Positions 5,112-22,340 of a stretch of DNA of 64,000 nucleotides are shown here, one piece after another. Each line of letters starts with the position of its first letter. Position 1 is the first letter of the stretch. The DNA is from Blastococcus sp. TF02A-30 (GTDB lineage Bacteria > Actinomycetota > Actinomycetes > Mycobacteriales > Geodermatophilaceae): the NCBI RefSeq assembly GCF_003319185.1, contig NZ_QOHJ01000007.1, forward strand, positions 186,001-250,000. Direction: 5' to 3'. The position numbers and the translations under genes were made by a program. Below the pieces are notes generated by a model. It worked only from the letters and a program-made list of their open reading frames with translations. It had not been told where the DNA came from and did no database searches.

Positions 5112-5132
5112 CTACGCCACCGCCCCTGCGGA

Positions 5133-5188: not shown

Positions 5189-5190
5189 CG

Positions 5191-6804
5191 TCACATGCGG
5201 AAGACGCCATAGCCGACCTCCTCGAGGGGCGCGTTGGCGCAGGCGGACAGGGCCAGACCGAGCACCCGGCGGGTGTCGGCGGGAGCGATGACGCCGTCGT
5301 CCCACAAGCGGGCGGTCGCGTAGTACGGGTGGCCCTGCGACTCGTACTGCTCGCGGATCGGCGCCTTGAACGCCTCCTCCTCCTCGGCCGGCCACTCCTC
5401 GCCGCGGGCCTCCAGACCGTCGCGGCGGACGGTGGCCAGCACTGAGGCCGCCTGCTCCCCGCCCATCACCGAGATCCGCGAGTTGGGCCAGGTGAAGAGG
5501 AACCGGGGCGAGTAGGCCCGGCCGCACATCGAGTAGTTGCCCGCCCCGAAGGAGCCGCCGATGACCACGGTCAGCTTCGGCACCCGGGCGCAGGCCACCG
5601 CGGTCACCATCTTCGCGCCGTGCTTGGCGATGCCGCCGGCCTCGTAGTCGCGGCCGACCATGAACCCGGAGATGTTCTGCAGGAAGAGCAGCGGGATCTT
5701 CCGGCGGTCGCAGAGCTCGATGAAGTGCGCGCCCTTGAGAGCGGACTCGGCGAACAGCACGCCGTTGTTGGCCACGATCCCGACCGGGTGGCCGTGCAGC
5801 CGGGCGAAGCCGGTGACCAGCGTGTGCCCGTACAGCGGCTTGAACTCGGCGAACCGGGAGCCGTCGACCAGCCGGGCGATGACGTCGCGGACGTCGTAGG
5901 GGGTGCGCGGGTCCGGCGGCACGACCTCGACCACGGACGCCGGGTCGTGGGCGGGCTCCTCGACCGGCTCGACGTCCCACGGCCGCGGCTCGCGCGGGCC
6001 CAGCGTGGAGACGATCTGGCGGACGATCTGCAGCGCGTGCGCGTCGTCGTCGGCCAGGTGGTCGGTGACCCCGCTGGTGCGGCTGTGCAGCTCGCCGCCG
6101 CCGAGCTCCTCGGCGGTCACCACCTCGCCGGTCGCCGCCTTCACCAGCGGTGGGCCGCCCAGGAAGATCGTGCCCTGCTCGCGGACGATGACGCACTCGT
6201 CGCTCATGGCCGGCACGTAGGCCCCACCGGCGGTGCAGGACCCGAGGACGGCGGCGATCTGCGGGATGCCCGCCTTCGACATCGTCGCCTGGTTGAAGAA
6301 GATCCGGCCGAAGTGCTCCCGGTCGGGGAAGACGTCGTCCTGCATGGGCAGGAAGGCACCGCCGGAGTCGACCAGGTAGATGCAGGGCAGCCGGTTGTGC
6401 AGGGCCACCTCCTGCGCGCGCAGGTGCTTCTTCACCGTCATCGGGTAGTAGGTGCCGCCCTTGACGGTGGCGTCGTTGGCGACCACCACGCACTCGCGCC
6501 CGCTGACCCGGCCGATGCCGGTGATGATCCCGGCGGCCGGGGCCTCGCCGTCGTAGAGGCCGTGCGCGGCCAGCGGTGAGAGCTCGAGGAACGGGCTGCC
6601 CGGATCCAGGAGGGCGTCCACCCGCTCGCGGGGCAGCAGCTTGCCGCGGGCGACGTGCCGCTCGCGGGCGCGCTCGCCTCCACCCAGCGCGGCGGAGCGC
6701 AGCTGCTCGGCCAGGTCGGCGGCCAGCGCGGCGTGCGCCGCGGCGTTGCGCGCGGCGGCGTCGGGGTCGGCCGAGGCGGCTCGGGGGAGCACCGGTGCGT
6801 CCAC
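5191..6804 (-). CDS. Acyl-CoA carboxylase beta subunit, methylcrotonyl-CoA carboxylase type
   Basis: A 537-residue carboxyltransferase, the usual length for MccB/AccD1. The N-half holds [20 protein letters not shown] and the diagnostic [20 protein letters not shown] segment of methylcrotonyl-CoA carboxylases. [16 protein letters not shown] and the C-terminal block [18 protein letters not shown] plus [16 protein letters not shown] form the acyl-CoA and biotin sites. It transfers CO2 from biotin to the acyl-CoA. The start chosen is a GTG; there is no strong ribosome site, and a leaderless or slightly internal start is possible. It is first in a leftward operon and divergent from a TetR-type regulator. 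Confidence 0.88.
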
Positions 6805-6881
6805 GGGCAGAGGTTAACCACGGTTCACTCCTGCGGTCCATCTCCCACCCCGGACCGTCAACGACCGTTAACATCCCGCCC
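6805..6881. promoter_or_regulatory. Divergent promoter region with GTTAAC-containing repeats
   Basis: The 77 bases between the carboxylase operon and the tetR gene contain an imperfect inverted repeat TTAACCACGGTTCA (6814-6827) and a second GTTAAC core (6867-6872) within CCGTCAACGACCGTTAAC. This is the AT-richest spot locally and is a natural site for both promoters and for operators of the adjacent TetR protein. Assignment rests on position and symmetry only. Confidence 0.4.
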
Positions 6882-7487
6882 ATGACCACCACCGGCGCGG
6901 AGCAGGACACCGCCCTGCACGCGGACGCCGGGCGCCCGTCGCGGCGGGAGCAGATCCTGCAGGCGGCGGCGCGGCTGTTCGCCGAGCGCGGCGCGCGGGC
7001 GGTGGGCGTCGACGACGTCGGCGCGGCCGTCGGCGTCACCGGCCCGGCGATCTACCGGCACTTCGCGAGCAAGGACGCGATGCTCGCCGAGATCCTGGTG
7101 CGGATCAGCGAGCGGCTGCTGGCCGGCGGCAGCGAACGGGTGGCCGCCGCCGGCGCGGACCCGGCCGACCAGCTGCGCGCGCTGATCGCCTTCCAGGTCG
7201 ACTTCGCCCTGGACAACCCCGCCCTGATCGTCGTGCACGACCGCGACCTCGGCTCGCTGCCGGAGGCCGACGCCGCCCAGGTGCGCCGGCTGCAGCGCCG
7301 CTACGTCGAGGTGTGGGTGGCCGTGCTCGCCCGGCTGCACCCGACCGCGGAGGCCGCGGCCTGCCGGGCGCGCGCGCACGCGGTCTTCGGCCTGATCAAC
7401 TCCACCCCGCACAGCGCCGGTCGGGTCGACCGCGCGGCGATGGCCGGGCTGCTGGCCGACATGGCCTGGTCGGCCGCGACCAGCTGA
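6882..7487 (+). CDS. TetR/AcrR-family transcriptional regulator
   Basis: A 201-residue TetR regulator. Residues 17-65 form the DNA-binding domain (REQILQAAARLFAERG, then VGVTGPAIYRHFASKDAML). The remainder is the helical ligand/dimerisation domain. It is transcribed divergently from the carboxylase/dehydrogenase operon across a 77-base gap with symmetric sequences. By the usual logic it represses that operon until an acyl-CoA or leucine-derived ligand binds. The ATG at 6882 places the HTH at the canonical distance from the N-terminus. Ligand and operator are inferred, not seen. Confidence 0.85.
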   Translation: MTTTGAEQDTALHADAGRPSRREQILQAAARLFAERGARAVGVDDVGAAVGVTGPAIYRHFASKDAMLAEILVRISERLLAGGSERVAAAGADPADQLRALIAFQVDFALDNPALIVVHDRDLGSLPEADAAQVRRLQRRYVEVWVAVLARLHPTAEAAACRARAHAVFGLINSTPHSAGRVDRAAMAGLLADMAWSAATS

Positions 7488-7491
7488 GGGA

Positions 7492-9321
7492 TCAGTCGAG
7501 GGACGGCGTCGCCAGCTGCAGGCCGTTGCTCGCGATCAGGTCGATCTCCGCGGACGACCCACCGGCGGCCGGGTCGACCCACGCGCTCTCCACGACGGTC
7601 ACCGTCGGCCCGGACACCGCGCTGGCGTACTCGGCGTTGGCCAGCTTCGCCGGCGCCCCCTCGTAGGTGACCCCCTCGCGCAGCAGGTCACTGACGTTGC
7701 CGCTGCCGTTGGTGTCGGTGAGCGCGCGCAGCTCGCGGGCGGTGGCGGTGTCGGCCATGCGCACCCGCACGACGGAGACGACGACGGCGCGCCCGTCCAC
7801 CTCGGTCGAGTACAGGGCCCGGGCCAGGCCGGTGCAGTCCTGCGCCCCGAAGAACGCCTGCGTGTCGCCGTAGGCGTGGCCGATGCAGGTGTCGTCGATC
7901 GTCGCCGCCTCGACGGTGTACGGGACGCCGTCGATCTCCTGGACGCTGCCGACCGCCGGGCCCGAGTCGGAGCCGGCGGTCGGGACCGCCTCGCCGCTGC
8001 CGCCGCCGTCCGCGTCGTCCCCGCCGCGCGTCGCGGCGTAGGCACCGACGCCGAGCCCGACGACCAGGACGAGGACCGCGAGGAGCACGAGCAGACGCCG
8101 GGAGCGGCGCGGCGGCTGCTCCTCGTCGGCAGGAACGCCCGGCGGGTTCCAGAAGGTCGGCGGCGGCGCGGGCTGCGCCGCCTGGGCCGCCTGCTGGTGG
8201 GCCAGGCTCAGCGGCGGGACCGGCGGCCCGGCCGGGGGCTGCGGCGTGGCCAGGGTCTGCGCCGGGAGGACGGCGGTGCGCGGCGGCTGCGCAGCGACCG
8301 GGGTCTCCGGCGCCGCGTTCGCGAACAGGCCCCCGATGCCGGCGTCCGCGGTGTCCGTCGACCCCGCCTGCTCCGGCCCGTCGATGGCCACCGTGTCGCG
8401 CGCGGGCGGTGTCGTCGCCGTGGGGGCGGGTGCCTGCCGGCTCCCCGCGGGCACCGGGCTGGTGCCGGTGCTCCCCTGCTGCGGCACCTCGACGGCACCC
8501 GCGGCGTGCGCCGCCGCCACCGAGGCGGCGACCGCCTGGGCGATCGACTCCGGCGTCGGACCGGCCGGCGGGCCCGGCGGAGCGGCGGGCGGCGGAGCGG
8601 CCTCGACCGGCGCGGGGCTCCCGGGGCCGGCGTTCATCGTGGCCGGGGTGAGCAGCTGCGGGCGGCGCAGCACGTACGGCGAGTACGGGAACCCCTCGCC
8701 GTTGAGCTCCTCGACCGAAGGGCCACGACCCTGGAGGCCGAGCGCCTCGAGGGCGGCGCGCACGTCGGCCGTCGTCCAGAGGCGGGGGTTGTCCACGCCG
8801 GCGTAGCGGCTGGCGCGGGCGATGCCGAGCAGCAGCGACCGGGTGTCCAGCAGGGCGACCTGGTCGCCCTCGCCGAGGTCGCCGTCGGTCGGCAGCAGGC
8901 CGCTGATGTCGCCGACCAGCACGGTCAGCCGGGCGATCCGGCCCGGCTCCAGCCCGGCACGCCGCAGGCGGACGGCGGTCTCCATGCCGGCGCGCATCAG
9001 CCCGTCCAGCGGGGTGGACCCGCCACCGGAGAGCTGGAGGACGGCGCCGCCGGTGCCGGGCGGGCCGATCGTCCACGGCCCCTCGGGCGAGGCGGTCACC
9101 ACGCCGGTCTGCCGCTCCACCTCGGCGACGCGGACGACGGCGATGCCCTCGGGGACGATCAGGATCGCGTCGGAGAGCCGGCGCTGCAGCGGGCCGTCGG
9201 CGAACGGGATCGACGCGACGACCGCACCCCGGACCGCGTTGCCGGTGTCCCAGCGGACGAGCTCGGAGAAGAACGCCCGTTCCCCGTCCGTCTGCGGGGG
9301 CAGCGGGTTGAGGGGCAGCAC
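7492..9321 (-). CDS. Large single-pass membrane protein, unknown function
   Basis: About 609 residues from a GTG at 9321, chosen because GGAGG lies five bases upstream; a longer start at 9387 is open but its GGAGGGG touches the start codon. Three parts are visible. First is an N-terminal domain of roughly 240 residues (starting VLPLNPLPPQTDGERAFFSE) that could be a ligand or nuclease-related fold. Next is a long Pro/Ala-rich linker. Then one transmembrane helix (RLLVLLAVLVLVVGLGVGAYAA) is followed by a small acidic, probably extracellular domain with two Cys (DDTCIGHAY, GAQDCTGLA) that could form a disulfide. I do not recognise the family. It converges on tetR with a 4-base gap. Confidence 0.7.
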   Translation of the reverse strand: MLPLNPLPPQTDGERAFFSELVRWDTGNAVRGAVVASIPFADGPLQRRLSDAILIVPEGIAVVRVAEVERQTGVVTASPEGPWTIGPPGTGGAVLQLSGGGSTPLDGLMRAGMETAVRLRRAGLEPGRIARLTVLVGDISGLLPTDGDLGEGDQVALLDTRSLLLGIARASRYAGVDNPRLWTTADVRAALEALGLQGRGPSVEELNGEGFPYSPYVLRRPQLLTPATMNAGPGSPAPVEAAPPPAAPPGPPAGPTPESIAQAVAASVAAAHAAGAVEVPQQGSTGTSPVPAGSRQAPAPTATTPPARDTVAIDGPEQAGSTDTADAGIGGLFANAAPETPVAAQPPRTAVLPAQTLATPQPPAGPPVPPLSLAHQQAAQAAQPAPPPTFWNPPGVPADEEQPPRRSRRLLVLLAVLVLVVGLGVGAYAATRGGDDADGGGSGEAVPTAGSDSGPAVGSVQEIDGVPYTVEAATIDDTCIGHAYGDTQAFFGAQDCTGLARALYSTEVDGRAVVVSVVRVRMADTATARELRALTDTNGSGNVSDLLREGVTYEGAPAKLANAEYASAVSGPTVTVVESAWVDPAAGGSSAEIDLIASNGLQLATPSLD

Positions 9322-9501
9322 GTCGTCCTCCGCACGGTCGGCGTCGCCGGACCCCCGCGGTACCGGCAGGCGCCGGCCGTCCGGCACCCCCTCCGACGCT
9401 ACGTCATGTAACGGGTCGGTCTCAGCGACCGCGCCGAACCGGGCGCGAGATCACCGGCGCCTGCCGACCCGGGCGGCGGCCGTTGCGTACTGTCGGTCGC
9501 C

Positions 9502-10167
9502 GTGGCAGAGAGCGCAGGGCACCTGGTCTGGATCGACTGCGAGATGACCGGGCTGGACATCGTCAAGGACAAGCTCATCGAGGTCGCCGTCGTCGTGACC
9601 GACTCCGAGCTGAACGTGCTGGACCCGGGTCTGGACCTGATCATCGCGGCGGACGACGCCGACCTCGACGGCATGAACGAGGTCGTCGTGGAGATGCACC
9701 GCAAGTCCGGGCTCACCGACGCCGTCCGCGCCTCGACGCTCACCGTCGCCGAGGCCGAGCAGCAGCTGCTCGCCTACATCAAGCGCTTCGTGCCCGAGCG
9801 GCGCACGGCCCCGCTGTGCGGGAACTCGATCGGCACCGACCGCGGCTTCCTCGCCCGGGACATGCCGGAGCTCGACGACCACCTCCACTACCGGATGGTC
9901 GACGTCTCCTCGATCAAGGAGCTGGCCCGCCGCTGGTTCCCGCGCGTGTACTTCGCCCAGCCGGCCAAGGGCCTGGCGCACCGCGCGCTGGCCGACATCC
10001 TCGAGTCGATCCGGGAGCTGGCCTACTACCGGCGCACCCTGTTCGTCCCCGCCCCCGGCCCGAGCAGCGACCAGGCCAAGGGCGCGGCCGAGGAGGTCGT
10101 GGGCTCGTTCGCCGCGCTCCTCGAGGCGGGCGACCCCGGCGCGCAGCCGGCCGTCGGCGGGGCGTGA
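9502..10167 (+). CDS. orn: Oligoribonuclease
   Basis: A 221-residue DEDDh 3'-5' exoribonuclease that finishes RNA decay by degrading two- to five-nucleotide fragments. Motif I is [12 protein letters not shown], motif II is [19 protein letters not shown], and the [14 protein letters not shown] segment gives motif III with the catalytic His and Asp. The GTG start places motif I at the expected position. The C-terminal 30 residues after YYRRTLFVP are a variable tail. It is followed by a hairpin and then the tRNA-His gene. Confidence 0.95.
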
Positions 10168-10190
10168 CGCACCCCGCTCCCCCGGGCTGA

Positions 10191-10212
10191 CCGGAGCGCT
10201 CACCCGCTCCGG
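10191..10212 (+). terminator. Hairpin after orn
   Basis: CCGGAGCG and CGCTCCGG form an 8-bp perfect stem with a 6-base loop, 24 bases after the orn stop codon. There is no clear U-tract, as is usual in actinobacteria. A TATCGT just after the right arm could be the -10 of the tRNA promoter. Confidence 0.5.
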
Positions 10213-10261
10213 TATCGTTGCTCCGGTTCCCCTTCCGGTGCGCGCACCGGCGGGCGGGCAT

Positions 10262-10338
10262 GGTGGGTGTAGCTCAGCTGGTAGAGCACCAGGTTGTGAT
10301 CCTGGGTGTCGCGGGTTCGAGCCCCGTCACTCACCCCA
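10262..10338 (+). tRNA. tRNA-His (GTG anticodon)
   Basis: A complete cloverleaf can be drawn. The extra G-1 is at 10262, the acceptor 10263-10269 pairs with 10328-10334, the D-arm begins AGCTCAGCTGGTAGAG, the anticodon loop TTGTGAT carries GTG, and the T-arm is GCGGGTTCGAGCCCCGT. The discriminator is C73 and CCA is encoded. G-1 opposite C73 is the histidine identity element. This gene is the attachment target of the island that follows; its last 30 bases are repeated at 17998-18027. Confidence 0.95.
10309..10338 (+). repeat. Left attachment site (tRNA-His 3' end)
   Basis: Thirty bases from the anticodon-arm side through the T-arm to CCA (starting TCGCGGGTTC, ending ACTCACCCCA) are identical to 17998-18027 in direct orientation. 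Because the intact tRNA lies next to the integrase gene, this end carries the tRNA 3' half supplied by the element; the far copy is the displaced original. Confidence 0.92.
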
Positions 10339-10343
10339 GCGGT

Positions 10344-10377
10344 GAAGGCCCTGGTCAGTTCGCTGACCAGGGCCTTC
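10344..10377 (+). terminator. tRNA-His terminator (element-borne)
   Basis: A 15-bp perfect stem (10344-10358 with 10363-10377) closed by a TTCG tetraloop, 5 bases after CCA. The core GGTCAG/CTGACC is shared with the hairpin behind the displaced tRNA end at 18031-18068. It should end tRNA transcription and insulate the integrase gene. Confidence 0.85.
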
Positions 10378-10430
10378 GTCTGTTCCGGCGCCGCCGCTGG
10401 CGCCCCCGGAACGCCGCTGCCCCCTCGCCT

Positions 10431-10450
10431 GGGGGGCAGATCGGGGGGCA
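10431..10450 (+). repeat. Left arm-type repeat of the island
   Basis: GGGGGGCAGATCGGGGGGCA is matched at the other end of the island by AGGGGGCAGATTGGGGGGCA (17871-17890), 18 of 20 identical, in the same orientation. Each is itself a tandem of GGGGGCA. The position between attachment core and integrase start suggests arm-type integrase binding sites. Confidence 0.65.
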
Positions 10451-10531
10451 GTGACGGGGCGACTGCGCACCGCAGACAGCTCCCGACGGTGCGGCTGGTC
10501 CTAACCGACCAACCCCACGGAGCCACCCCCC

Positions 10532-11977
10532 ATGTCCCTCAAGCCCCCCAGCCTCTGGATCGAGAAGCGCGGCCACCAGCACCGCGTGTACTGGCGCAAC
10601 AGCCTCCCCGGCCTGCCGGCCCGGTCCTACCTGCCCTTCTACGGCCGCGCCGAGGCCGAGAAGTTCGTCGGCATGGCCGCCCTGCTCGGCCTCGACAGCT
10701 CGCGCCAGGTGCTCGACACCGACGACCCGCAGGCCGCCGCCGCGCTGCTGCAGGCAGCGCTCGCCACGCGAGGCCTCGCGCCCGCCGACCCGGCGCCGGC
10801 CCCTGCGCGGCTGGCACCAGCCGGACCGCCGCCGCTGTCCGCAGCGCCGTCCGACCCCCGGCTCACCGGTGTGCCGTTCCGCACGCTGTGGCAGACCTTC
10901 CTCGACCGCCAGCACCACGTGGAGGAGGGCACCCTCGAGGACTACACCAGCTACGGCACCTACCACCTGCTCCCCTTCTTCGGCGACACCGACATCGGCC
11001 TCATCCTCCGGACCAAGCCGCTGCGCGCCGCCGACGTCCCGGCCGGCGCCGTGTACATCGAGGACGGCTGGCTGAAGGAGATGCTGAAGAAGGAGCGACG
11101 CAACAACGTCGGCCGCCCGATCGCCGGCACCATCCTCAGCCACAAGTTCATCAACAACGTCCTCGACGTCCTCGGCCAGTGCTTCGACGTGGCGCTCGCC
11201 GAGCGGCCGCCGCTGCTGAGCGACAACCCCGCGCGCGGCATCCGGCTGCCCAAGCACGACCGCCGCGACATGCACTTCCTCAACGACGCCGCCGCCTACG
11301 CCGCGCTCCGCGCCGCCATGCACGGCCACTTCCAGGTCCTGCTCGACTTCCTCGTCGGAACCGGCGCCCGCTACGGCGAGGCCGCCGGCCTGCTGGTGCG
11401 CCACCTGCACCTGGACGCGGAGCGCCCCTACGTCGACATCCGGCTGGCGCTGAAGTGGCGCGGCAAGAAGTGGAAGCTCGGCCGGCCGAAGACCCGGTCG
11501 TCGATCCGCCGCATCCTGCTGCCCTCCCGCCTGGTCGAGGTGCTGCGCCCGCTGGTCGCCGGCAAGGGCACCGACGACCACGTGTTCACGATGGTCGAGG
11601 GCGGTCCGCTGCACCACGGCAACTTCTCCAACCGGTACTGGAAGAAGGCGGTCAAGGCAGCCGCCGGCGCACAGGTGCCCAAGGGGACCCGCGTACACGA
11701 CCTGCGGCACACGCACGCCGCCTGGCTCCTGTCAGCAGGAGTCGCCCCGCTGGTGGTCGCCGCCCGGCTCGGTCACAGCTCGGTCACCACCACGCAGAAC
11801 GTCTACGGCCACATCACCACCGAGGCCGACGACCGCGCCATCGACATCGTCGACGGCCGGTTGCCCGAGGTCCTCGCCCGCGACGACGAGGGCGCAACCC
11901 TGGTGGAGCTCACCGCGGCGGAGAAGCGGCTGCCGGTGTTCCAAGACATCGACGACGAGGACGACGTCGCCGCGTGA
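10532..11977 (+). CDS. Tyrosine recombinase / site-specific integrase
   Basis: A 481-residue phage-type integrase. The N-terminal 110 residues are an arm-binding-like region and a Pro/Ala linker; a SAM-like core-binding domain follows (FRTLWQTFLDRQHHVEEGTLEDY). The catalytic domain shows GTGARYGEA (Arg280), a beta-hairpin Lys near 320, HDLRHTHAAWLL (His389, Arg392), LGHSS (His415) and the nucleophile Tyr425 in TQNVYGH. All catalytic residues are present, so it looks functional. The ATG has GGAG upstream. It lies 190 bases after the intact tRNA-His that its element occupies, and it should catalyse integration and excision at the 30-bp repeat. Confidence 0.95.
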   Translation: MSLKPPSLWIEKRGHQHRVYWRNSLPGLPARSYLPFYGRAEAEKFVGMAALLGLDSSRQVLDTDDPQAAAALLQAALATRGLAPADPAPAPARLAPAGPPPLSAAPSDPRLTGVPFRTLWQTFLDRQHHVEEGTLEDYTSYGTYHLLPFFGDTDIGLILRTKPLRAADVPAGAVYIEDGWLKEMLKKERRNNVGRPIAGTILSHKFINNVLDVLGQCFDVALAERPPLLSDNPARGIRLPKHDRRDMHFLNDAAAYAALRAAMHGHFQVLLDFLVGTGARYGEAAGLLVRHLHLDAERPYVDIRLALKWRGKKWKLGRPKTRSSIRRILLPSRLVEVLRPLVAGKGTDDHVFTMVEGGPLHHGNFSNRYWKKAVKAAAGAQVPKGTRVHDLRHTHAAWLLSAGVAPLVVAARLGHSSVTTTQNVYGHITTEADDRAIDIVDGRLPEVLARDDEGATLVELTAAEKRLPVFQDIDDEDDVAA

Positions 11978-12205
11978 CGCCGGATCCGGCCGACTCCTGT
12001 GCCGCTCAGGTTTCACTCGTGACATCTCGCGAGCTGTCGCCTGCCCCGTCGGGGTGATGTCCACCGCGGGCACTCAAGTCTGGTTGGGACATCAGCCGAA
12101 CAACTCCATGTCAGCGCACCAGATGTCAGTCGACGGGTGACTGTGCTGACCACAGGCTGCGGCGGGGTGGCATTTCCACCCGGCCGCCGCACCCGCAAGG
12201 GTGCC

Positions 12206-12241
12206 GGCCCCGGGCCTCGTCCCCGCGACGAGCCCGGGGCC
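12206..12241. terminator. GC-rich hairpin between convergent genes
   Basis: A stem of about 15 bp (GGCCCCGGGCCTCGTC pairing with GACGAGCCCGGGGCC, one bulged C) with a 5-base loop, 230 bases after the integrase stop and 248 bases past the end of the leftward operon. It may terminate either transcript. Confidence 0.55.
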
Positions 12242-12396
12242 TCCATGCGTCGTCGACCCAGAAGGCAGTCGTGCCCGCCGACCGCGCTCAGGCGGGCTGC
12301 GCAGAGTCGGACCCGGGCATGGTCACGGTTCGATCGTGCTCCGCGAACCCGACCCCTTGAGCCAGCCTCTGGAACTGTCGGTGCCGAGCCCGGCGG

Positions 12397-12434
<38 letters not shown>

Positions 12435-13602
12435 CGAGCACCGCAGCACCTGAGCCCACCTGGGCCGGCCGCGACAGTCCAGACGCGCTCAGCCGGCCGT
12501 CCGGTCCGGCTGGTAGGTGTAGGCGGCGTCGCGCACGGCCTCGTCGGTCTCCAGGCCGGCGCCCAGCGCCCCGCCGACGGTGGCCAGGGAGCTGGTCAGC
12601 CAGGCCAGCTCCACGTAGTCCGACAGACCCACCGCATGCGCCAGCCCGTCGGCGAACAACGCCGACGGCACCAGCAGCAGGGCACCGGCCAGGGCCAGTA
12701 CGAACAGCGCCGCGTACAGCGCCAGCACGCCGAGGACGACCGTGGCGGTGGTCGCCAGGTTGAACAGCGCCACCTGCTTGCGCACGCGTCGCTCCGGGGC
12801 CCCCTCCCACAGCTGCGCGCCGACGATCAGGGTGACCGCGATGGCCACCACCGACCCGAGTGCCACCGCGGTCAACCGCGCCCAGCCGAACGCGTCGGCC
12901 AGCCGCCAGATGTCGGAGGTGACCAACGCGAACACGCCCGCGGCGATGGCCGCGGTGAGCGCCCGGGACAGGCCGGCGGCCAGCCGCCAGGGCCGGTTCG
13001 CGCGGACCATGCCCAGCAGCAGCCGTGCGTTGCCCGACAGCACCCGGGCGGTGAAACGGATGCCCTCGGCCGACTCGGCCGGCTCGGAAGCGAGCTCCCG
13101 CAGGCGCCGCCGGAGACCGACCGGATCGGAGCCCGCGCGGGGGCCGAGCAGCGCCCGGATGAGGTCGAGCGTGGTCTTCAGTGCCCGTCGGCGCAGCCCG
13201 ACCGCGCCGAGCGCCGGCAGCGACAGCACTGCCACCCCGTGCACCGGGCTGGCGTGCGCCACGACCGGGCGACGGTTCGCCGCCAGTGGCAGGTAGGTCA
13301 GGCAGACCGCCAGGTCCCAGCCCTCGGCCAGCAGCCGGGTGCGGGCGGCGGCGACGATCTCGGCGTCGTCGGCCGGTGGCTGCACCAGGCCGTCCTCGCT
13401 GCACCGGACGTCCCACCGGATCTCGGCGTGCTCGGCGGACAGCTGCCGGCTCAGCTCTCCGGTCAGCCAGCCGGCGAGCTCGGTCGCGGCTCCGGGTGCG
13501 GCCACCAGGCCGACGACGACGTCGGGCAGCGCACCGTCAGCCGGTGCCTCGTCCTCGTCGCCGGGCGGCTGGTCGCCTGGGTGGGGAACCGTCACCGGCG
13601 CC

Positions 13603-16317
<2,715 letters not shown>

Positions 16318-16435
16318 TGTGCCACTCCTGTACCGCTCGTGAATCCGTGGTGTCGGTCCTGCGGCGTCCTGCCGTCCCGGGCACCGCGATGTCGGGTCGT
16401 GCCGGGGAGGAGGCCGCGCACCCCGGGCACCGGGC

Positions 16436-16924
16436 TCAGCTGCCTTGCTGCCCGTCCCCGCCGGAGCTCTGTCCCTGCTCCTCGCCGCTGACGGGCAGCT
16501 GCTGCTGGCCGCCGCCGTGCTGAACCTCGATGCGGCGGGGCTGCGCCTGCTCCGACACCGGGACGGTCAGGTAGAGCACGCCGTCGTTGTAGGTGGCCTG
16601 CACCTTGCCGGTGTCCAGCCCGTCGCCGAGCTGAAGCTGCCGGGTGAACCGGCCCTGCGGTCGCTCGGCCAGCAGCACGTTGGCGCCCTGCTGGTACTCG
16701 GCGCCGCGCTCGGCCCGGATTGTGAGCATGTTCCGCTCGGTGGTGATCTCCACGCTGCCCGGGTCGACTCCGGGCAGGTCGAGTGCCACGTGGTATCCGT
16801 CCTCGGCCTGCCACACGTCCATCGGCATGCCCATCGGCGTTCGTGTGCCGCTCATCAGCTGACTGGTCAGCCGATCCAGGCTCCGGAACGGATCCCCGAA
16901 CGGGTCGAAACGCATCACACTCAC
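16436..16924 (-). CDS. Hsp20 / alpha-crystallin small heat-shock protein
   Basis: A small heat-shock holdase of about 162 residues. The alpha-crystallin domain runs from MDVWQAEDGYHVALDLPGVD to the hallmark YNDGVLYLTVPV; the C-terminal RRIEV resembles the I-x-I anchoring motif and is followed by a Gln/Gly-rich tail. The GTG at 16924 has GGGAG five bases upstream; an ATG three codons later is the alternative. It lies between the HdeD-like gene and the Clp ATPase gene on the same strand. sHsp plus Hsp100 is a natural pair: the first holds unfolded proteins and the second extracts them. Confidence 0.92.
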   Translation of the reverse strand: MSVMRFDPFGDPFRSLDRLTSQLMSGTRTPMGMPMDVWQAEDGYHVALDLPGVDPGSVEITTERNMLTIRAERGAEYQQGANVLLAERPQGRFTRQLQLGDGLDTGKVQATYNDGVLYLTVPVSEQAQPRRIEVQHGGGQQQLPVSGEEQGQSSGGDGQQGS

Positions 16925-17023
16925 CGCAACTCCCAAGGCAGTCGTCGATCACTCGAGCAGTCGCGCACCGTCGCGCTCGACTGGAGGGCCGCGGCTTGGC
17001 CCGTTCTCCCGGTCGCCTCCGTT

Positions 17024-17594
17024 TCAGATCCGCAGGACCATGACGTTCGCGCTGCGCAGGCGCCATCCGGCGACGAGCAGGAGCACGCCGGCGAGCAGGG
17101 GCGTAGACACCCAGCACCGTGGCCAGGGCCAGCGCGCCCACGTCCGGCCGTGCGAAGATCACGACTCCGGCGGCGATGGAAACGATGCCCAGCACGGCCA
17201 GCAGCCATTCACCGGTGATTTCCCGCCGCAGCCGCACTGCCGCGACCACTTCGAGCACCCCTGTGACCACCGCCCAGGCGCCGGCCAACAAGGTCAACCC
17301 CCGCGCAGTGACGCCCGGCCACAGTGCGGCGATCACCCCGGCAACCACACTGAGAGCGCCGGCCACCAGGTACAGCCACCGCCTGCGCGAGTCACCGTCG
17401 CGGTCCAGGCCGCTGGCGAACATCCCGACGCCATCGACAACCGCGTAGGCAGCGAACAGCAGCGCCAACGCCAGCACCGTCGCACCCGGCCACACCAGTG
17501 CCAGCACACCGAACAGCACCGCCAGCACCCCGCGCAGCAGCAGCACCTGGGACAGGCGGCGCGCGACGTTCACACCGCCCCGATTCCCCGTCAT
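17024..17594 (-). pseudogene. HdeD-like (DUF308) membrane protein, frameshifted near its end
   Basis: Six hydrophobic segments in HdeD pattern are readable: LLLRGVLAVLFGVLALVWPG, ATVLALALLFAAYAVVDG, a Trp/Pro repeat ALSVVAGVIAALWPG, then VLGIVSIAAGVVIFARPD. After VLGVYA the frame breaks. Shifting by one base restores the expected ending (LLAGVLLLVAGWRLR, then SANVMVLRI and stop at 17024). The shift lies at a run of four G on the plus strand (17098-17101), one base too many. It is either a true inactivating mutation, a phase-variable tract or a sequencing error. The start is ATG 17594 or GTG 17573. This is the first gene of the stress operon; HdeD proteins serve acid and envelope stress in enterobacteria. 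Confidence 0.8.
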
Positions 17595-17997
17595 CTGATC
17601 GTTATGCACGAAATGCTGCCGGTTCTCCACCGTCCCGCAACAGCGCCCCGCTACGGCCGCGCACTGCCCCGGCGCAGCGGTCCGGCCCGGCGCCGGGCGG
17701 GCTGCGGTGACCGTCGTTGCACCCCGTGGTCTCGCGGCCCAACGCGTCCAACCCCCATCGTGTCGCGCACGTCGGAGTGGGGGCGGCCTGTCCACGGGAG
17801 ACGCAGTTCCGTTTCCGCCCACCGGACACGTGCAGGCCAAGCGCGAAAGCGTCGGCTGGTTGTCGAACTTAGGGGGCAGATTGGGGGGCAACCGGACGCT
17901 CAGGATCGATCAGGAACGCTCAGGGACGATCGGGGATGTCGGAGAAGCCCGGTACCTTGCGGATTCACCGGGCCAACAGGCCCGGGACCGGCCTCAC
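17595..17997. other. Upstream region of the cargo operon and right end of the island
   Basis: The 400 bases before the HdeD-like gene contain no supported gene. They should hold the operon promoter, but no CIRCE or HAIR (CTTGAGT-N7-ACTCAAG) element was found. Toward the right end are the arm-type repeat (17871-17890) and a tandem of two similar 20-base units (17896-17915 and 17916-17935, both starting ACGCTCAGG). Confidence 0.5.
17871..17935 (+). repeat. Right arm-type repeat plus tandem 20-mers
   Basis: AGGGGGCAGATTGGGGGGCA (17871-17890) matches the left-end copy at 18 of 20 bases. Directly after it come ACGCTCAGGATCGATCAGGA and ACGCTCAGGGACGATCGGGG, 16 of 20 identical to each other. Such clusters beside an attachment core are typical of recombinase or directionality-factor binding. 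Confidence 0.6.
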
Positions 17998-18027
17998 TCG
18001 CGGGTTCGAGCCCCGTCACTCACCCCA
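17998..18027 (+). repeat. Right attachment site (displaced tRNA-His 3' end)
   Basis: An exact 30-base copy of 10309-10338. Only the T-arm/acceptor half is present, with no D-arm or anticodon upstream, so it is the original chromosomal 3' end displaced by integration rather than a second tRNA. Confidence 0.92.
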
Positions 18028-18030
18028 CGA

Positions 18031-18068
18031 GGAGAGGCCCCGGTCAGGCGACTGACCGGGGCCTCTCC
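18031..18068 (+). terminator. Original chromosomal tRNA-His terminator
   Basis: A 17-bp perfect stem (18031-18047 with 18052-18068) and GCGA loop, 3 bases after the displaced CCA. Spacing and core sequence parallel the element-borne terminator at 10344-10377, supporting the view that this was the tRNA terminator before integration. Confidence 0.85.
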
Positions 18069-18091
18069 GCATCTCGCCGTTCTCGGCCCGA

Positions 18092-18385
18092 TCACCGCGC
18101 CCGACGGGCGCGCAGGGCCAGACCGACCACGGTCACGGGCAGGGCCACTGCCGCGACGCCGCCGGCGAACGCACCGATCTGGACGGCGCCCGAACGATCA
18201 GCTGCCAGCTCGCCCGCGCCGATCGCTGCCGCCGCCACGGCGGCGCCGAGCAGCCCCAGCCCGGTGATCGCCCGCCGCACCCCCGCCTCCTCGGCTCCGC
18301 TCTCCTGGGGCCGCAGGACCACCAGGGCGCCCGCCGCCGCCAGTCCGGTCGCGACCGCCATCAGGAGGACCGCCGGCCACATCAC
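18092..18385 (-). CDS. Small membrane protein, unknown
   Basis: A 97-residue protein with three predicted membrane helices (MMWPAVLLMAVATGLAAAGA, AITGLGLLGAAVAAAAIGAG, AGGVAAVALPVTVVGLALRA) and short charged loops. No conserved motif is recognised. It is the first gene outside the island on its right side and reads toward the tRNA terminator hairpin. The ATG at 18385 is the only reasonable start. A GTCAC-type regulatory motif lies about 120 bases upstream. Confidence 0.55.
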   Translation of the reverse strand: MMWPAVLLMAVATGLAAAGALVVLRPQESGAEEAGVRRAITGLGLLGAAVAAAAIGAGELAADRSGAVQIGAFAGGVAAVALPVTVVGLALRARRAR

Positions 18386-18502
18386 GTCGCGATCTCCATG
18401 GCGACCTCTGCTCCTCGGCTCGTCGGTGCGCCGTCCGGCCCTGGTGGCGGTCCGGGGGCCCCTTCCCCGGTGCCGCCCCCACCGCTCTGCCGTGGACGAG
18501 TC

Positions 18503-18518
18503 GTCACGGGATCGTCAC
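18503..18518 (+). promoter_or_regulatory. GTCAC-N6-GTCAC direct repeat (candidate regulator box A)
   Basis: GTCACGGGATCGTCAC is two GTCAC words 11 bases apart, between two divergent small genes. It is the weakest match (11 of 16 on the reverse strand) to the box found at 21554, 30955 and 20096. The spacing equals one helical turn, as for OmpR-family regulators such as MtrA. Confidence 0.5.
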
Positions 18519-18611
18519 GGCAGCCGCACCGGTGTGGAGATCTCGTGACGACCGGCGGGACACTCCGGGGCCGGGGTTCCGTCCTCGGCGACCGCGTCGC
18601 ACGGTCGTCCC

Positions 18612-18860
18612 ATGCACGCGATCTGGGTCCAGACCCCGCACAACCTGCACTGCCCGCGGTGCGACCGGCGCCTGGTGCAGCAGGCCGGCGTCCACTTCCA
18701 CAGTCGCCTGCAGTCGCACGTGTACGTGGGTGAGGTCGGCACGCTCGCCTGCCCGAACGGGCACCGGCTGCCGGAGCGGAACGAGCTCTACACGCACCGG
18801 GAGCGCCGCGGGTACGCCCCCGTGGCCCCCGTGTCGCAGGTTCCGCCGCCGCACCGATGA
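18612..18860 (+). CDS. Small zinc-ribbon-like protein
   Basis: An 82-residue protein with two Cys/His knuckles: HCPRCDRRL near residue 13 and LACPNGHRL near residue 46. Together they could bind one zinc ion. The spacing suggests a rubredoxin/zinc-ribbon fold, and a C-terminal RRGYAPVAPV tail has no features. A candidate box A lies about 95 bases upstream. The ribosome site is weak, so expression is less certain than the motif. Confidence 0.55.
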   Translation: MHAIWVQTPHNLHCPRCDRRLVQQAGVHFHSRLQSHVYVGEVGTLACPNGHRLPERNELYTHRERRGYAPVAPVSQVPPPHR

Positions 18861-18926
18861 CCCTCACCGGGCACGGCCCGCGGTCGCCCGCCCCCGACCG
18901 GGACGGGCACCCAGCGGCTCGGGTGC

Positions 18927-19324
18927 TCACCATGCGCGTCTCCTCGATGTCGGGGGAAGGTCGGCGGCCGATGGGCCGCTGCCACGCTGACGTGAGGACA
19001 TTGCGATCACCATGACCGGGACCCGGCGATCCGATGACGGTTCGCCGGTCCCCGACCACCCGCTCCGCCGCCGGCCCCGGTCCGGGGTCGCGCAGCTCCG
19101 CGCCGCCACACCGGCGTCGCTGCAGAAGCCCGTGCGGCTGCGCGAGAGGCACACCAGACCCACGAGGCGGTTCGCGCCGTCGACGACGGCGAGACGGCGC
19201 ACTCCGGCGTCCCGCAACCGGCGAACACCGCTGGGACGTCCCCGGCCGACGCGTCGGCCGGCAGCACCTCCGGCCTCGTGATCATCACGTCGGCCGCGGT
19301 GACGGCGGTCAGCGTGCTCGTCAT
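18927..19324 (-). pseudogene. CBS-domain protein, frameshifted
   Basis: The first frame begins at ATG 19324 and reads TAADVMITRPEVLPADASAG, a standard CBS start. After DVPAVFAG the match moves to another frame as RDAGVRRLAVVDGANRLVGL, the second half of the same CBS motif. One missing T near 19215 would rejoin them as FAGLRDAGVRRL. Beyond RTGFCSDAGVAAR the similarity fades. The start overlaps the stop of the lipoprotein gene (ATGA), so the two were one transcript. It is either a decayed gene or a sequencing error; a single-CBS protein is all that could be restored. Confidence 0.65.
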
Positions 19325-19866
19325 TCCTCGGTCGGGTCCTCGGCGGGGTCCTCGAAGTCGAACGGCTGGTCCGGGGACTGCCCCTCGGCAGCGACCATCG
19401 CCTCGACCGTGACCTCCCCCGCCTCCTCGAAGACGAACGTCACCGGGATCGACTCGGAGGAACGCAGCTCGGTCTGCAGGTCCTCCAGCACGATCGACGG
19501 CGCGCCCTCGGCCCCGACGTAGACGTTGTCGTCCTCGGGGACGCGGATGACCCCCGGCTCGCCGTCGACCGTGAGCGTGGCGTCCAGGAAGTCGGGGCCC
19601 CGGACGTCGACCAGGTCGTCCTCCGGCTCGCCCGTGTTCGCGATGCCGAGGTACAGCGGCGCGTCCTCGCCGGCCTCGTAGACGCCGTCCTCCGGGTACG
19701 CCAGCTGCACCTGCAGGAGCTTCAGGTCCTCGTTCACGGCCTCGTCGGGTCCCACCGCGCCGCTGTCGTCGACGTCGGGGGTCTCGTCCCCGCAGGCCGC
19801 CACGGCGAGGGCGGCCGCGATCACCGCGACTCGTCGTGGGATCGGGGTCCGGTGCTGTGCAGACAT
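19321..19866 (-). CDS. Lipoprotein, PCu(A)C/LpqE-like
   Basis: A 181-residue secreted lipoprotein. A short signal peptide ends in a lipobox (ALAVAACGD). The mature part is acidic and beta-rich, with LLQVQLAYPED, APLYLGIANTGEPEDDL and SIPVTFVFEEAGEVTVEAMV, resembling the PCu(A)C-type copper-chaperone or LpqE fold. The Met/His copper ligands of true PCu(A)C proteins are not evident, so metal binding is doubtful. AAGGAAGGA precedes the ATG. A candidate regulator box lies 230 bases upstream (20096-20111); the 230-base leader has no gene. Confidence 0.75.
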   Translation of the reverse strand: MSAQHRTPIPRRVAVIAAALAVAACGDETPDVDDSGAVGPDEAVNEDLKLLQVQLAYPEDGVYEAGEDAPLYLGIANTGEPEDDLVDVRGPDFLDATLTVDGEPGVIRVPEDDNVYVGAEGAPSIVLEDLQTELRSSESIPVTFVFEEAGEVTVEAMVAAEGQSPDQPFDFEDPAEDPTEE

Positions 19867-20095
19867 GCGTCGTCCTTCCTTCACGGGTGGCGGGCCGGAG
19901 TGCATCTCCACCGTGCGCGGCCTCGCGCCCGGCACGCCCGCGTCGACGCGGCGGTGACGCAGCAGCGAGCCGGGGCACCCGTGCGAAGCGGCTGCGGGGA
20001 CCTGTCCCACCACGTCGGCCTTCCACTCGGACGGTTCCTGGGAGCACGTACGGGGTTCCCGGCGCCCGCTCCGGATAACGGCCCCGCGGCCTTCT

Positions 20096-20111
20096 GTCAC
20101 GGAACTGACAT
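20096..20111 (-). promoter_or_regulatory. Candidate regulator box D
   Basis: On the minus strand ATGTCAGTTCCGTGAC matches the box at 21554-21569 in 14 of 16 positions. It lies upstream of the lipoprotein gene, overlapping the last bases of the decayed channel frame. Confidence 0.5.
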
Positions 20112-20707
20112 GCAGCACAGCGGCCGTCCTCCGCCTCTGGACGGGCCCGCGGAGGCGCCGTGCCGATGCGGGCGGACCCCGGGCACGGTCACGACGACGG
20201 CCAGGACCAGCCCGCTCCGTGGGGGACGGCGGAGCCCGTCGGGCTCCCGCGACGCCGGCGTGCCACCGACGGTCTGGACGTACCGGGCGATCAGCCGACG
20301 CACCGGGCGGACGCCCAGCGGATCCGGCGCCGCTGACGGATCGCCGGCGGCGTCGAGCAGCAGCAGGTTGTCGTCCAGGGCGGCGATCGCCACCGGCACG
20401 GACTCGTCGGGTGCCCGGCTGCGGAAGCAGTGCAGGACCGGGTACGCGAGGTGCTGCTGCGCGACGGTGGCCAGCGGCCCGCTGAGCCCGATCAGCTGCT
20501 GGGCGAGGGCGGGGCCGAACGCGTCGCCGGTCCAGGCACCGGCCACCATGGCCCCGCCGGTCGGACCGAGCGCCCGGATCTGGGTAGCGAGGGCGCACCC
20601 GACGTGTGATCGGTCCGGCGCCCTCCCCCAGGGTCGACGTCGTCGCCAGGACGTCGACGAGCACCGCGACGACCAGCACCGCCCGTGGACGCGACGACGC
20701 CGAGCAC
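20097..20707 (-). pseudogene. Potassium channel-like membrane protein, core deleted
   Basis: Pieces of an actinobacterial two-pore-domain-type ion channel. The N-terminal helix (LVVAVLVDVLATTSTLGEG) is followed almost at once, in another frame, by the C-terminal cytosolic domain (ALATQIRALGPTGGAMVAGA, then QQHLAYPVLHCFRS and AIAALDDNLLLLDA). The pore helix and selectivity-filter region (normally TLGxGD) are missing, so there is an internal deletion near 20600. A second one-base shift near 20690 would be needed to begin at GTG 20707. The gene cannot make a channel. It begins 2 bases after the ZIP-like gene ends. Confidence 0.7.
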
Positions 20708-20709
20708 CC

Positions 20710-21483
20710 TCACTCCCCCAGCGCCGTCACCGCGCTCAGCAGCGCGGCGTAGAACCCGAGCCCGGTGAGGAACCAGCCGTAGCTCGACCGGCCGGTGGAC
20801 GGCAGCTCCTCCTTGAACACGTTGAGCAGGATGGATCCACCGAGCAGCGCGGTGAGGAGAGCGACGACCACCGTGCTCGTGGGTGCGAACAGGGCGTCCA
20901 GCCCCCACCCGAGCAGGAGGGCAGCGGCGAGGAGGGCCCGCCCGCTGCGTGGGAACCGGCGGGGGTAGTGCTCCTCGAGCGATCGGTCGGTGAGCACGAA
21001 GTGCAGGCCCATCGCGAGGGCGAACAGCACGGCGAAGGCGACGCCGGTCCGGAGCCGCAGGGCCATCGTGTAGGTGATCAGGGCGTTGTAGACCATGAAC
21101 GACCCGAGGTGCAGCCAGTAGACGCCGGCCGGCTCCCGTGCTCCCTGCCCCGTGGCTGCCCGCGTCCGGGCCAGCCGCTCCAGCCCGTAGAAGGCGGCGA
21201 ACCCGGCGAGCGCGACGAGGAAGATCCCGAGGTCCAGCAGCGGTGTCGGCTCGAGCACGTCGCTGAGGGCCTCACCGATCGCCTCGTTGCCCTCGGCGAG
21301 CTCCGGCAGCAGGTGCAGGAAGACGTACGCCACCGCCAGGCCGCCCGCGAAGGAACCGGTCACCCGCTCGGGGACCAGCGGCAGCCGGCGGATGCGTGAC
21401 GCCGCCACGTGCAGGGCGGCCAGCAGGAGGCTGATCACCAGCGCCCCCACCACCGACCCCGCCGTCGTGAGATCCCCGTCCAC
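20710..21483 (-). CDS. Multi-pass membrane protein, ZIP-like
   Basis: About 257 residues with seven or eight hydrophobic helices. The HLLPE in AYVFLHLLPELAEG resembles the metal-site helix of ZIP transporters, but the second ZIP histidine motif is not obvious, so the link is tentative. The GTG at 21483 has GGAGGG upstream and removes a non-hydrophobic extension, which supports this start. It is divergent from the response-regulator gene, with a candidate regulator box in the 137-base gap, and the decayed channel gene follows it directly. Confidence 0.65.
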   Translation of the reverse strand: MDGDLTTAGSVVGALVISLLLAALHVAASRIRRLPLVPERVTGSFAGGLAVAYVFLHLLPELAEGNEAIGEALSDVLEPTPLLDLGIFLVALAGFAAFYGLERLARTRAATGQGAREPAGVYWLHLGSFMVYNALITYTMALRLRTGVAFAVLFALAMGLHFVLTDRSLEEHYPRRFPRSGRALLAAALLLGWGLDALFAPTSTVVVALLTALLGGSILLNVFKEELPSTGRSSYGWFLTGLGFYAALLSAVTALGE

Positions 21484-21553
21484 CCATGCCCTCCCGCCGC
21501 CGGTTGCCGACGACGTGGCGTTCCCTGACCGTGCCGCGGTAGTCGGTGCGTCG

Positions 21554-21569
21554 ATGACAGATCCGTGAC
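21554..21569 (+). promoter_or_regulatory. Candidate regulator box B
   Basis: ATGACAGATCCGTGAC lies in the divergent promoter of the ZIP-like and response-regulator genes. Read on the minus strand it is GTCAC-N6-GTCAT. It is 15 of 16 identical to the site at 30955-30970. Position upstream of an OmpR-type regulator suggests autoregulation. Confidence 0.6.
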
Positions 21570-21620
21570 GATCCCCGCGCTCGGCCTTCCTCCCGCGCGC
21601 AGGAGACGCACAGTTCGGAC

Positions 21621-22340
21621 GTGGACCGTTCAGGCCGTGCGGACGCGGGCACACTGCCCGACGTGCCGCAGTCCGTACTGGTCATCGAGGACGATGCCCG
21701 CATCCGCCGCGTGGTCGAGATGACCCTGCAGCGGGAGGGGTTCGAGGTGTGCGAGGCGGCCTCCGGCGAGGAGGGGCTGGCGCGCCTTGGCGGACGGCCG
21801 TTCGACGTGGTGCTCCTGGACCTCCGCCTGCCCGGGATCGACGGCTTCCAGGTGTGCCGCGAGATCCGGAAGACCAGCACGACCCCGGTGATCATCCTGA
21901 CCGCCCGGTCGGACAGCGACGACGTCGTCGCCGGGCTGGAGGCCGGGGCCGACGACTACGTCACCAAGCCGTTCGTGCCCAAGGAGATCGTCGCGCGGGT
22001 CCGCGCCACCGCCCGGCGCACCCGCGGTGGCGGCGAGCCACCGACGATCGTCGTCAACGGCATCGAGGTGTCCCCGCTCGCCGGGACCGTCACCCGCGAC
22101 GGAGCTCCGATCGAGCTGACGAAGACGGAGCTGCGCCTCTTCGTCGAGCTGGTCGCCGACCGCGGCCGCGTCCTGAGCCGCGAGGACCTGCTCCAGCGCG
22201 TGTGGGGCTACGACTACTTCGGGGACTCCCGCCTCGTCGACGTCCACATCCGACGACTGCGGAAGAAGGTCGAGGCCGATCCGGCCCGACCGGAGGTCGT
22301 CACCACGGTGCGGGGCCTGGGGTACCGGGTGCCGGCATGA
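21621..22340 (+). CDS. OmpR/PhoB-family response regulator (MtrA-like)
   Basis: A 239-residue regulator. The receiver domain has the acidic pair in VLVIEDDA, phospho-acceptor Asp67 in VVLLDLRLPG, the conserved Thr in IILTARSD and Lys in VTKPFVP. The winged-helix domain ends with RLVDVHIRRLRKKVE and VRGLGYRVPA. A GTG at 21663, just before PQSVLVIEDD, would remove a 14-residue extension and is an equally good start. Its stop overlaps the ATG of the kinase gene (ATGA). The kinase and GerMN-lipoprotein partners resemble the MtrA-MtrB-LpqB arrangement. Confidence 0.93.
   Translation: MDRSGRADAGTLPDVPQSVLVIEDDARIRRVVEMTLQREGFEVCEAASGEEGLARLGGRPFDVVLLDLRLPGIDGFQVCREIRKTSTTPVIILTARSDSDDVVAGLEAGADDYVTKPFVPKEIVARVRATARRTRGGGEPPTIVVNGIEVSPLAGTVTRDGAPIELTKTELRLFVELVADRGRVLSREDLLQRVWGYDYFGDSRLVDVHIRRLRKKVEADPARPEVVTTVRGLGYRVPA

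What the first reader, a model, noticed from the sequence alone, without database searches (positions are those of the whole stretch)
10309..18027. A compact tRNA-His island carrying an HdeD / Hsp20 / Hsp100 heat-stress operon
The sequence directly shows a 30-bp tRNA-His repeat at both ends, an intact integrase, and a single operon of HdeD-like protein, Hsp20, Clp ATPase and an unknown membrane protein. In proteobacteria the transmissible locus of stress tolerance (locus of heat resistance) also joins sHsp20, a ClpG/ClpK disaggregase and HdeD on mobile islands. An actinobacterial, integrase-borne 7.7-kb counterpart would be a convergent or shared mobile stress system. That it confers heat tolerance is inference.
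Basis: partly seen in the sequence, partly recalled or inferred. Interest (0 to 1): 0.82.

Follow-up and report, generated by a model that had tools for sequence, protein, structure and literature searches.

The report
Mobile heat-shock island in tRNA-His
A soil actinobacterium carries a small integrase-borne DNA island in a tRNA gene, whose cargo is a set of protein-rescue genes laid out like the transferable heat-resistance islands of other bacteria but assembled from different parts.

Summary
In a Blastococcus genome a 7.7-kb element sits in the 3' end of tRNA-His: exact 30-bp repeat (67 bp at 82% with both terminators), full-length tyrosine integrase, and a minus-strand array of hdeD, hsp20, a 904-aa Hsp100/Clp and an unknown membrane protein. 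Correction: hdeD has a 1-nt frameshift. The element belongs to a family: four other Blastococcus and two Geodermatophilus-group genomes hold elements at orn/tRNA-His with the same right end (2-6 mismatches in 32; controls 9-12, shuffles 8-12) but other cargo. None of 22 other Blastococcus has this cargo there. Hsp20 and membrane protein are nearest to Geodermatophilus copies. The Clp groups with other actinobacterial Hsp100s, not with ClpG/ClpK, ClpB or ClpC; it lacks the ClpC-type ClpP loop and has a Phe-rich N-terminal extension, suggesting a stand-alone disaggregase. The same hdeD-hsp20 pair heads larger DnaK-ClpB clusters in relatives. It fails tLST membership (no ClpG; none of the tLST's other modules among its five genes) but looks like a convergent, compact counterpart of the tLST core. 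Excision, disaggregation and heat tolerance are untested.

The parts
10263..10338 (+). tRNA-His (GTG), intact; its last 30 bp are attL
   Evidence: ARAGORN; repeat
10309..10338 (+). attL core, 30 bp
   Evidence: exact repeat, 0 in shuffles
10339..10380 (+). hairpin (terminator-like) after tRNA-His; by eye a hairpin stands behind each of the 23 Blastococcus tRNA-His copies
10432..10450 (+). left arm repeat GGGGGCAGATCGGGGGGCA, candidate integrase arm site
   Evidence: 2 matches in window, mean 0.05 in shuffles; versions in several sibling elements
10532..11977 (+). tyrosine integrase, 481 aa
   Evidence: PF00589 E 9e-19; catalytic motifs
12489..13634 (-). membrane protein of unknown function, 368-381 aa by start chosen (membrane character by eye)
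   Evidence: no Pfam/NCBIfam match; trees
13603..16317 (-). Hsp100/Clp ATPase, 904 aa, no G-F (ClpP) loop, Phe-rich N-terminal extension
16436..16936 (-). Hsp20 small heat-shock protein, 166 aa
   Evidence: PF00011 E 2e-24; 90% to Geodermatophilus sp. TF02-6
17024..17594 (-). hdeD (DUF308) with a 1-nt frameshift near 17105
   Evidence: PF03729 E 1e-30; 571 nt
17872..17890 (+). right arm repeat GGGGGCAGATTGGGGGGCA
17896..17934 (+). two tandem copies of ACGCTCAGGrwCGATCrGG
   Evidence: similar repeats in siblings by eye
17966..17997 (+). conserved 32-bp right-end block with inverted repeat, directly before attR
   Evidence: 2-6 mismatches in six sibling elements, 9-12 in 16 control loci, 8-12 in 20 shuffles
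17998..18027 (+). attR core, 30 bp
18028..18068 (+). second hairpin, read as the chromosomal tRNA-His terminator displaced by the insertion

Best explanation
A site-specific integrative element of a Geodermatophilaceae family that inserts into the 3' end of tRNA-His next to orn. Its integrase joins attP (30-bp tRNA end plus its own terminator) to the tRNA gene, so the tRNA stays intact and the old terminator ends up at the right border (the sequence shows the result; the recombination is inferred). Its cargo is a compact, independently assembled protein-rescue module. Hsp20 holds unfolding proteins in a re-foldable state. The Clp, which lacks the loop that docks ClpC to ClpP and has an aromatic N-terminal extension, pulls proteins out of aggregates without DnaK and without degrading them. 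HdeD (now frame-shifted) and the second membrane protein would act at the membrane. The expected effect is better survival of heat, drying or oxidants (inference).
For: Borders; joining the flanks leaves an intact tRNA-His. Family: elements with the same right end and related integrases or remnants behind orn/tRNA-His, with other cargo. Patchy: island-type Clp (E 0, 62-65%) in 7 of 59 relatives, 1 of 22 in the genus, none beside orn in the seven 19-kb stretches read; island-type Hsp20 (73-87%) in 8 of 111 other family genomes. Foreign: the membrane protein stands apart from the 13 Blastococcus copies, among them the host's own second copy. Clp: no G-F loop; Phe 7 of residues 1-30 against 16 of the other 874. 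ClpL shares with ClpG the lack of a ClpP motif and binds aggregates by aromatic N-terminal residues (PMC11006417: abstract and passages). The hdeD-hsp20 pair also heads DnaK-ClpB clusters. Hsp20, HdeD and Clp lie together in 5 of 8 ClpG-clade plasmid loci viewed.
Against: hdeD is frame-shifted, so the module may be decaying. The excisionase-like protein of three siblings is not in the window. No near-identical strain without the island and no base-exact empty site was found. Five Geodermatophilaceae relatives of the Clp do carry LGF in the loop, so ClpP independence is not general in this group. No HAIR or CIRCE site (consensus recalled) in the island. Of 11 actinobacterial Clps in the group only this one was seen with Hsp20 and HdeD beside it. 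The Clp may be commoner than the 59-genome sample shows: one search lists further family genomes with unplaced Clp-type frames that I did not follow.
Confidence: 0.6

Rival explanations
1. It is a true but reduced tLST (locus of heat resistance) that reached an actinobacterium from Proteobacteria or Deinococcus.
For: Same three protein families; HdeD 37-50% and Hsp20 31-36% to tLST-type loci.
Against: Clp falls outside the 8-row ClpG/ClpK clade (100/100), with a 96/99 branch between; NCBIfam ClpK 894 and ClpG 897 bits, cut-offs 1900. Hsp20 90% to Geodermatophilus. The gene list of 10309-18027 leaves no room for YfdX, FtsH, Trx, KefB or DegP (not searched by model).
Confidence: 0.04
2. The island is mobile but the Clp is a ClpC-like unfoldase that works with ClpP or in regulated proteolysis, and the array is a general proteolysis module.
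For: UVR motif and short middle domain as in ClpC; five near relatives have LGF and one VGF in the loop.
Against: The window Clp has no G-F motif there; a ClpC of the ClpC clade already lies on C9; Hsp20 as neighbour fits aggregation.
Confidence: 0.2
3. A decaying or passenger cargo: genes swept in by the element with no present benefit.
For: hdeD frameshift; remnant or split integrases and varied cargo in siblings.
Against: Clp, Hsp20 and the membrane protein are open reading frames picked by a coding-bias caller of my own.
Confidence: 0.16

Closest known systems
Transmissible locus of stress tolerance / locus of heat resistance (tLST, LHR)
   Same: Mobile island joining sHsp20, an Hsp100 without a ClpP motif, and HdeD
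   Different: Hsp100 from another clade than ClpG/ClpK; none of YfdX1/2, FtsH, Trx, KefB, DegP, cls among the five genes; tRNA-His tyrosine integrase; actinobacterial host
ClpL, plasmid-borne stand-alone disaggregase of Gram-positives
   Same: Hsp100 with no ClpP motif and an aromatic N-terminus, carried on mobile DNA
   Different: 46% identity over the AAA core; N-terminal domain of another kind (recalled); no Hsp20 or HdeD annotated in the 5.8 kb viewed
Geodermatophilaceae HdeD-Hsp20-DnaK-GrpE-DnaJ-ClpB-Trx clusters (L084, L085, L089; L083 without hdeD found)
   Same: Same hdeD-hsp20 pair (HdeD 43-62%, Hsp20 72-76%) followed by an Hsp100
   Different: DnaK with a true ClpB; not at tRNA-His; no tRNA in 19 kb on either side of two of them
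tRNA-targeted integrative elements / genomic islands with tyrosine integrase
   Same: Integrase beside the tRNA 3' end, direct repeat, conserved end sequences, exchangeable cargo
   Different: This family was seen only at orn/tRNA-His of Geodermatophilaceae; 6.2-18.3 kb; conjugation genes were not searched for, none noticed by eye

Membership tests
tLST / LHR | ClpG/ClpK disaggregase | tested here: not met
   NCBIfam 894-897 bits against cut-offs of 1900; tree
tLST / LHR | sHsp20 and HdeD genes | tested here: met
   Pfam; but hdeD is frame-shifted
tLST / LHR | YfdX, FtsH, Trx, KefB, DegP modules | tested here: not met
   gene inventory of 10309-18027 holds only the integrase and four cargo genes; no model search for each family
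tLST / LHR | over 80% DNA conservation across hosts (PMC8290217 section 11) | tested here: not met
   inferred from 52% protein identity of the Clp to Klebsiella ClpK
tLST / LHR | raises survival of lethal heat | not testable with these tools
   needs a bench assay
tRNA integrative element | direct repeat of the tRNA 3' end at both ends | tested here: met
tRNA integrative element | full-length site-specific recombinase next to the tRNA | tested here: met
tRNA integrative element | site differently occupied, or without a second tRNA end, in relatives | tested here: met
   second tRNA end in 5 of 22 other Blastococcus, other cargo; no base-exact empty site
tRNA integrative element | excision and circular form | not testable with these tools
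   junction PCR needed
Stand-alone disaggregase (ClpG/ClpL type) | no ClpP-docking motif | tested here: met
   alignment of 33 Clps
Stand-alone disaggregase (ClpG/ClpL type) | aggregate-binding N-terminal extension | tested here: inconclusive
   Phe-rich extension present; binding untested
ClpB | long coiled-coil M-domain and equivalog score | tested here: not met
   1022.7 bits against 1232.1; short middle domain; outside the ClpB clade
ClpC | G-F ClpP loop and place in the ClpC clade | tested here: not met

The most novel reading that the evidence does not exclude
Actinobacteria have their own transferable stress-tolerance islands, built independently of the proteobacterial tLST: a tRNA-His element family of Geodermatophilaceae took up the hdeD-hsp20 pair that elsewhere heads DnaK-ClpB heat-shock clusters and joined it to a new lineage of stand-alone Hsp100 disaggregase that needs neither DnaK nor ClpP.
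Probability: 0.42. Interest if true: 0.78.

Novelty: new variant of a known kind. Interest (0 to 1): 0.6.

Why it matters
The tLST review read here (PMC8290217, sections 3, 8, 11) reports such loci in Proteobacteria and Deinococcus; the word 'actinobacter' does not occur in its text. An independently assembled counterpart would show that sHsp20 + Hsp100 + HdeD is a unit selected repeatedly for transfer. It would also give a new Hsp100 lineage in which presence and absence of the ClpP loop can be compared within one group, and a small tRNA-His-specific integrase system for high-GC actinobacteria.

Tried and rejected
Membership in the tLST by Clp family was rejected. HAIR and CIRCE operators (consensus recalled) were sought in the island with up to 3 and 5 mismatches: none. 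Sigma-70 promoters and terminators: no excess. The excisionase-like protein of three siblings is not in the window. Folding the membrane protein alone gave pLDDT 47.6 and was not used. The exact right-end pattern was not found in viral contigs, nor a relative of the integrase by back-translated patterns.

Trees: a first membrane-protein tree had 25 of 32 intended rows, and a first Hsp20 tree held wrong segments for some rows; both were redone from tblastn segments (of 17 Hsp20 loci given, L083 was dropped for a stop in its segment). The first membrane-protein tree put the window row with seven Geodermatophilus-label rows at 99/95. In the redone one, with a very long outgroup row (L036), the window row is in no starred group; it stays outside the 13 Blastococcus copies (92/90). 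The Hsp20 tree is weakly supported near the window row. ClpL falls on the same side as the actinobacterial Clps, on a branch of 2.98, so nothing is made of it.

Literature: seven searches; by listed titles and abstract starts none showed an actinobacterial tLST-like island. Only openly licensed papers are held. Read: PMC8290217 sections 3, 8 and 11 and passages; PMC11006417 passages.

Full report
WHAT IS THERE. The window lies in a 4.13-Mb, 38-contig genome. tRNA-His is at 10263-10338. Its last 30 bp recur exactly at 17998-18027; 100 shuffles give none. Each copy is followed by a strong hairpin, so that 67 bp repeat at 82%. By eye a hairpin follows each of the 23 Blastococcus tRNA-His genes printed, so the right-hand one is read as the displaced native terminator. 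Joining the flanks leaves an intact tRNA-His. Island GC is 72.5% against 75.5% for the rest of the window, a small difference.

GENES. The integrase 10532-11977 is a full-length tyrosine recombinase (PF00589) with R, K, HxxR and GH...Y. On the minus strand follow hdeD, hsp20, clp and a membrane protein with gaps of 87, 118 and 7 nt, the last a 32-nt overlap if the upstream start is used. hdeD is 571 nt long and changes frame near 17105: a pseudogene or an assembly error.

A FAMILY OF ELEMENTS. The orn-tRNA-His stretch is found over its full length in 23 of 23 Blastococcus. Five of the 22 others show a second tRNA end downstream on the same contig: G004 (8.2 kb), G005 (8.1 kb), G007 (11 kb), G020 (18 kb), and a gapped match in G008 26 kb away that I did not confirm. 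Integrase relatives in G432 (66%), G417, G420, G413 and G234, and remnants in G004 and G007, lie just behind orn/tRNA-His. Right end: a 32-bp block directly before attR has 2, 2, 2, 4, 5 and 6 mismatches in G004, G005, G417, G420, G007 and G020; 16 control loci give 9-12 and 20 shuffled blocks 8-12. For G413, G234 and G432 the right end was not in the stretch fetched, and G008 was not tested. Arms: GGGGGCAGATyGGGGGGCA stands at both ends of the window element (0.05 expected). In siblings it is at both ends in G417, G420 and, weakly on the left, G004; at one end in G007, G432, G413 and G234; it is not found in G005 and not convincingly in G020. From hits 6014-12213 (G420) to 750-19041 (G020) the elements measure 6.2-18.3 kb. 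Cargo, judged by eye from start sequences of predicted genes, differs: metal-type genes (G004, G007, G020), oxidoreductases and regulators (G005), universal stress protein and ATPase types (G432), regulators and others (G417, G420). cobN begins about 200 bp after attR in G020, 1.4 kb after attR in G004 and 2.6 kb after the tRNA in G008, three of the 20 site stretches compared, so orn/tRNA-His/cobN may be the old order.

WHERE THE CARGO COMES FROM. Hsp20: 73-87% in 8 of 111 other family genomes; all other listed matches are 56% or less. Three of the eight are Blastococcus (G015, G017, G022), none at tRNA-His. A pattern scan of the named genome collection gave 14 loci; in 394 genomes of the class 20 pass E 1e-45, the window's own included. 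The best is 90% to Geodermatophilus sp. TF02-6; the host's other Hsp20 is 44%. Membrane protein: family present in 140 of 397 genomes of the order; 29 of 29 loci looked at have no Clp or Hsp20 within 1.5 kb. The host has a second copy on C23 that groups with 12 other Blastococcus copies; the island copy does not. Clp: 62-65% relatives in 7 of 59 genomes, none with Hsp20 nearby, one (G024) with a 44% relative of the membrane protein 3.5 kb away. The Clp type may be commoner: one search lists more family genomes with Clp-type frames I did not place.

THE CLP. NCBIfam puts it under the cut-offs of ClpB (1022.7 against 1232.1), ClpG (896.9 against 1900) and ClpK (893.9 against 1900). In a tree of 33 Clps a 96/99 branch separates 11 actinobacterial rows plus ClpL (very long branch) from 21 rows that hold ClpG/ClpK (8 rows, 100/100), ClpB and ClpC. 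The AAA core is 68-73% identical to the ten other rows of that group and 46-64% to the rest. In the loop where ClpC binds ClpP (role recalled; the ClpC rows show G-F) the window Clp has none; five Geodermatophilaceae relatives have LGF and one further row VGF, while Nonomuraea, Streptomyces, Tsukamurella and G052 have none. The middle domain is short. Residues 1-30 hold 7 Phe against 16 in the other 874. ClpL and ClpG act without DnaK and lack a ClpP motif, and ClpL binds aggregates through aromatic N-terminal residues (PMC11006417, abstract and passages); ClpG binds aggregates through an extension of its N-terminal domain (PMC8290217 section 8). A stand-alone disaggregase is therefore the most likely activity; this is inference from anatomy.

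COMPARISON. The tLST joins sHsp20s, ClpG, cls, FtsH, YfdX1/2, HdeD, Trx, KefB and DegP (PMC8290217). Of 2275 plasmid records with a Clp match I fetched fifteen loci, twelve of them with 6-8 kb flanks, picked from the top of the list and not at random. Eight of the twelve fall in the ClpG clade; five of these have both Hsp20 and HdeD nearby (Klebsiella, Deinococcus with a partial Hsp20 match, two Paraburkholderia, Paracoccus), one has Hsp20 only, two neither. Paraburkholderia dioscoreae pI has HdeD-Hsp20-(gene)-Clp, the window's order. Of the 11 actinobacterial Clps only the window's was seen with both. In relatives the same hdeD-hsp20 pair heads a cluster read by eye as zinc-ribbon gene, DnaK, GrpE, DnaJ, regulator, ClpB and Trx (L084, L085, L089). 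In L083, where no hdeD was found, Pfam confirms FtsH, M48 protease, trypsin-PDZ protease, a second Hsp20, AhpC/TSA, glutaredoxin, DUF2267 and thioredoxin; the regulator had no match. That cluster's ClpB is patchy too: 92-100% in three genomes and 76-78% in nine more of 108 searched, three of the nine as fragments (G421 was not in that draw).

VERDICT. A real, site-specific integrative element with a compact proteostasis cargo. It probably works like the core of the tLST but fails its membership tests, so it is filed as a new, convergent variant. Mobility today, disaggregation and heat tolerance are inferred, not shown.

Noticed in passing
L083 (G017), L084 (G015), L085 (G022), L089 (G421): Large heat-shock clusters with HdeD (not found in L083), Hsp20, DnaK, GrpE, DnaJ, a regulator, a second ClpB and thioredoxin; L083 adds FtsH, M48 protease, trypsin-PDZ protease, second Hsp20, AhpC/TSA, glutaredoxin and DUF2267. 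Content parallels the tLST but with DnaK/ClpB.
   Followed up: partly
window 18028-33640: A further 15.6 kb lies between the island and cobN, which is close to the tRNA-His site in G004, G008 and G020; two genes at 31056-31478 and 31582-32184 match (86%, 69%) cargo of G004's island. Perhaps an older accretion; no second right end found in the window.
   Followed up: partly
L159, L170, L171: A small excisionase-like protein (about 102-112 aa, named by eye) near the right end of three sibling elements, absent from the window.
   Followed up: partly
L083, L084, L085, L089 upstream of hdeD or hsp20: A shared stretch resembling ATCTATGTTTGCGG...TAGGTTTGGGGAAG, a possible common regulatory site; not seen by eye in the island.
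   Followed up: no
L181 7086-10472 (Tsukamurella plasmid): An actinobacterial Clp of the same group sits directly behind a DyP-type peroxidase and an encapsulin shell gene.
   Followed up: no
L036-L042, L179-L181: The LGF/VGF loop motif is present in some and absent in other members of one Clp group, a natural experiment on ClpP dependence.
   Followed up: partly
window 12489-13634; L092: A membrane protein family without any Pfam or NCBIfam match for the window member, in 140 of 397 genomes of the order.
   Followed up: partly
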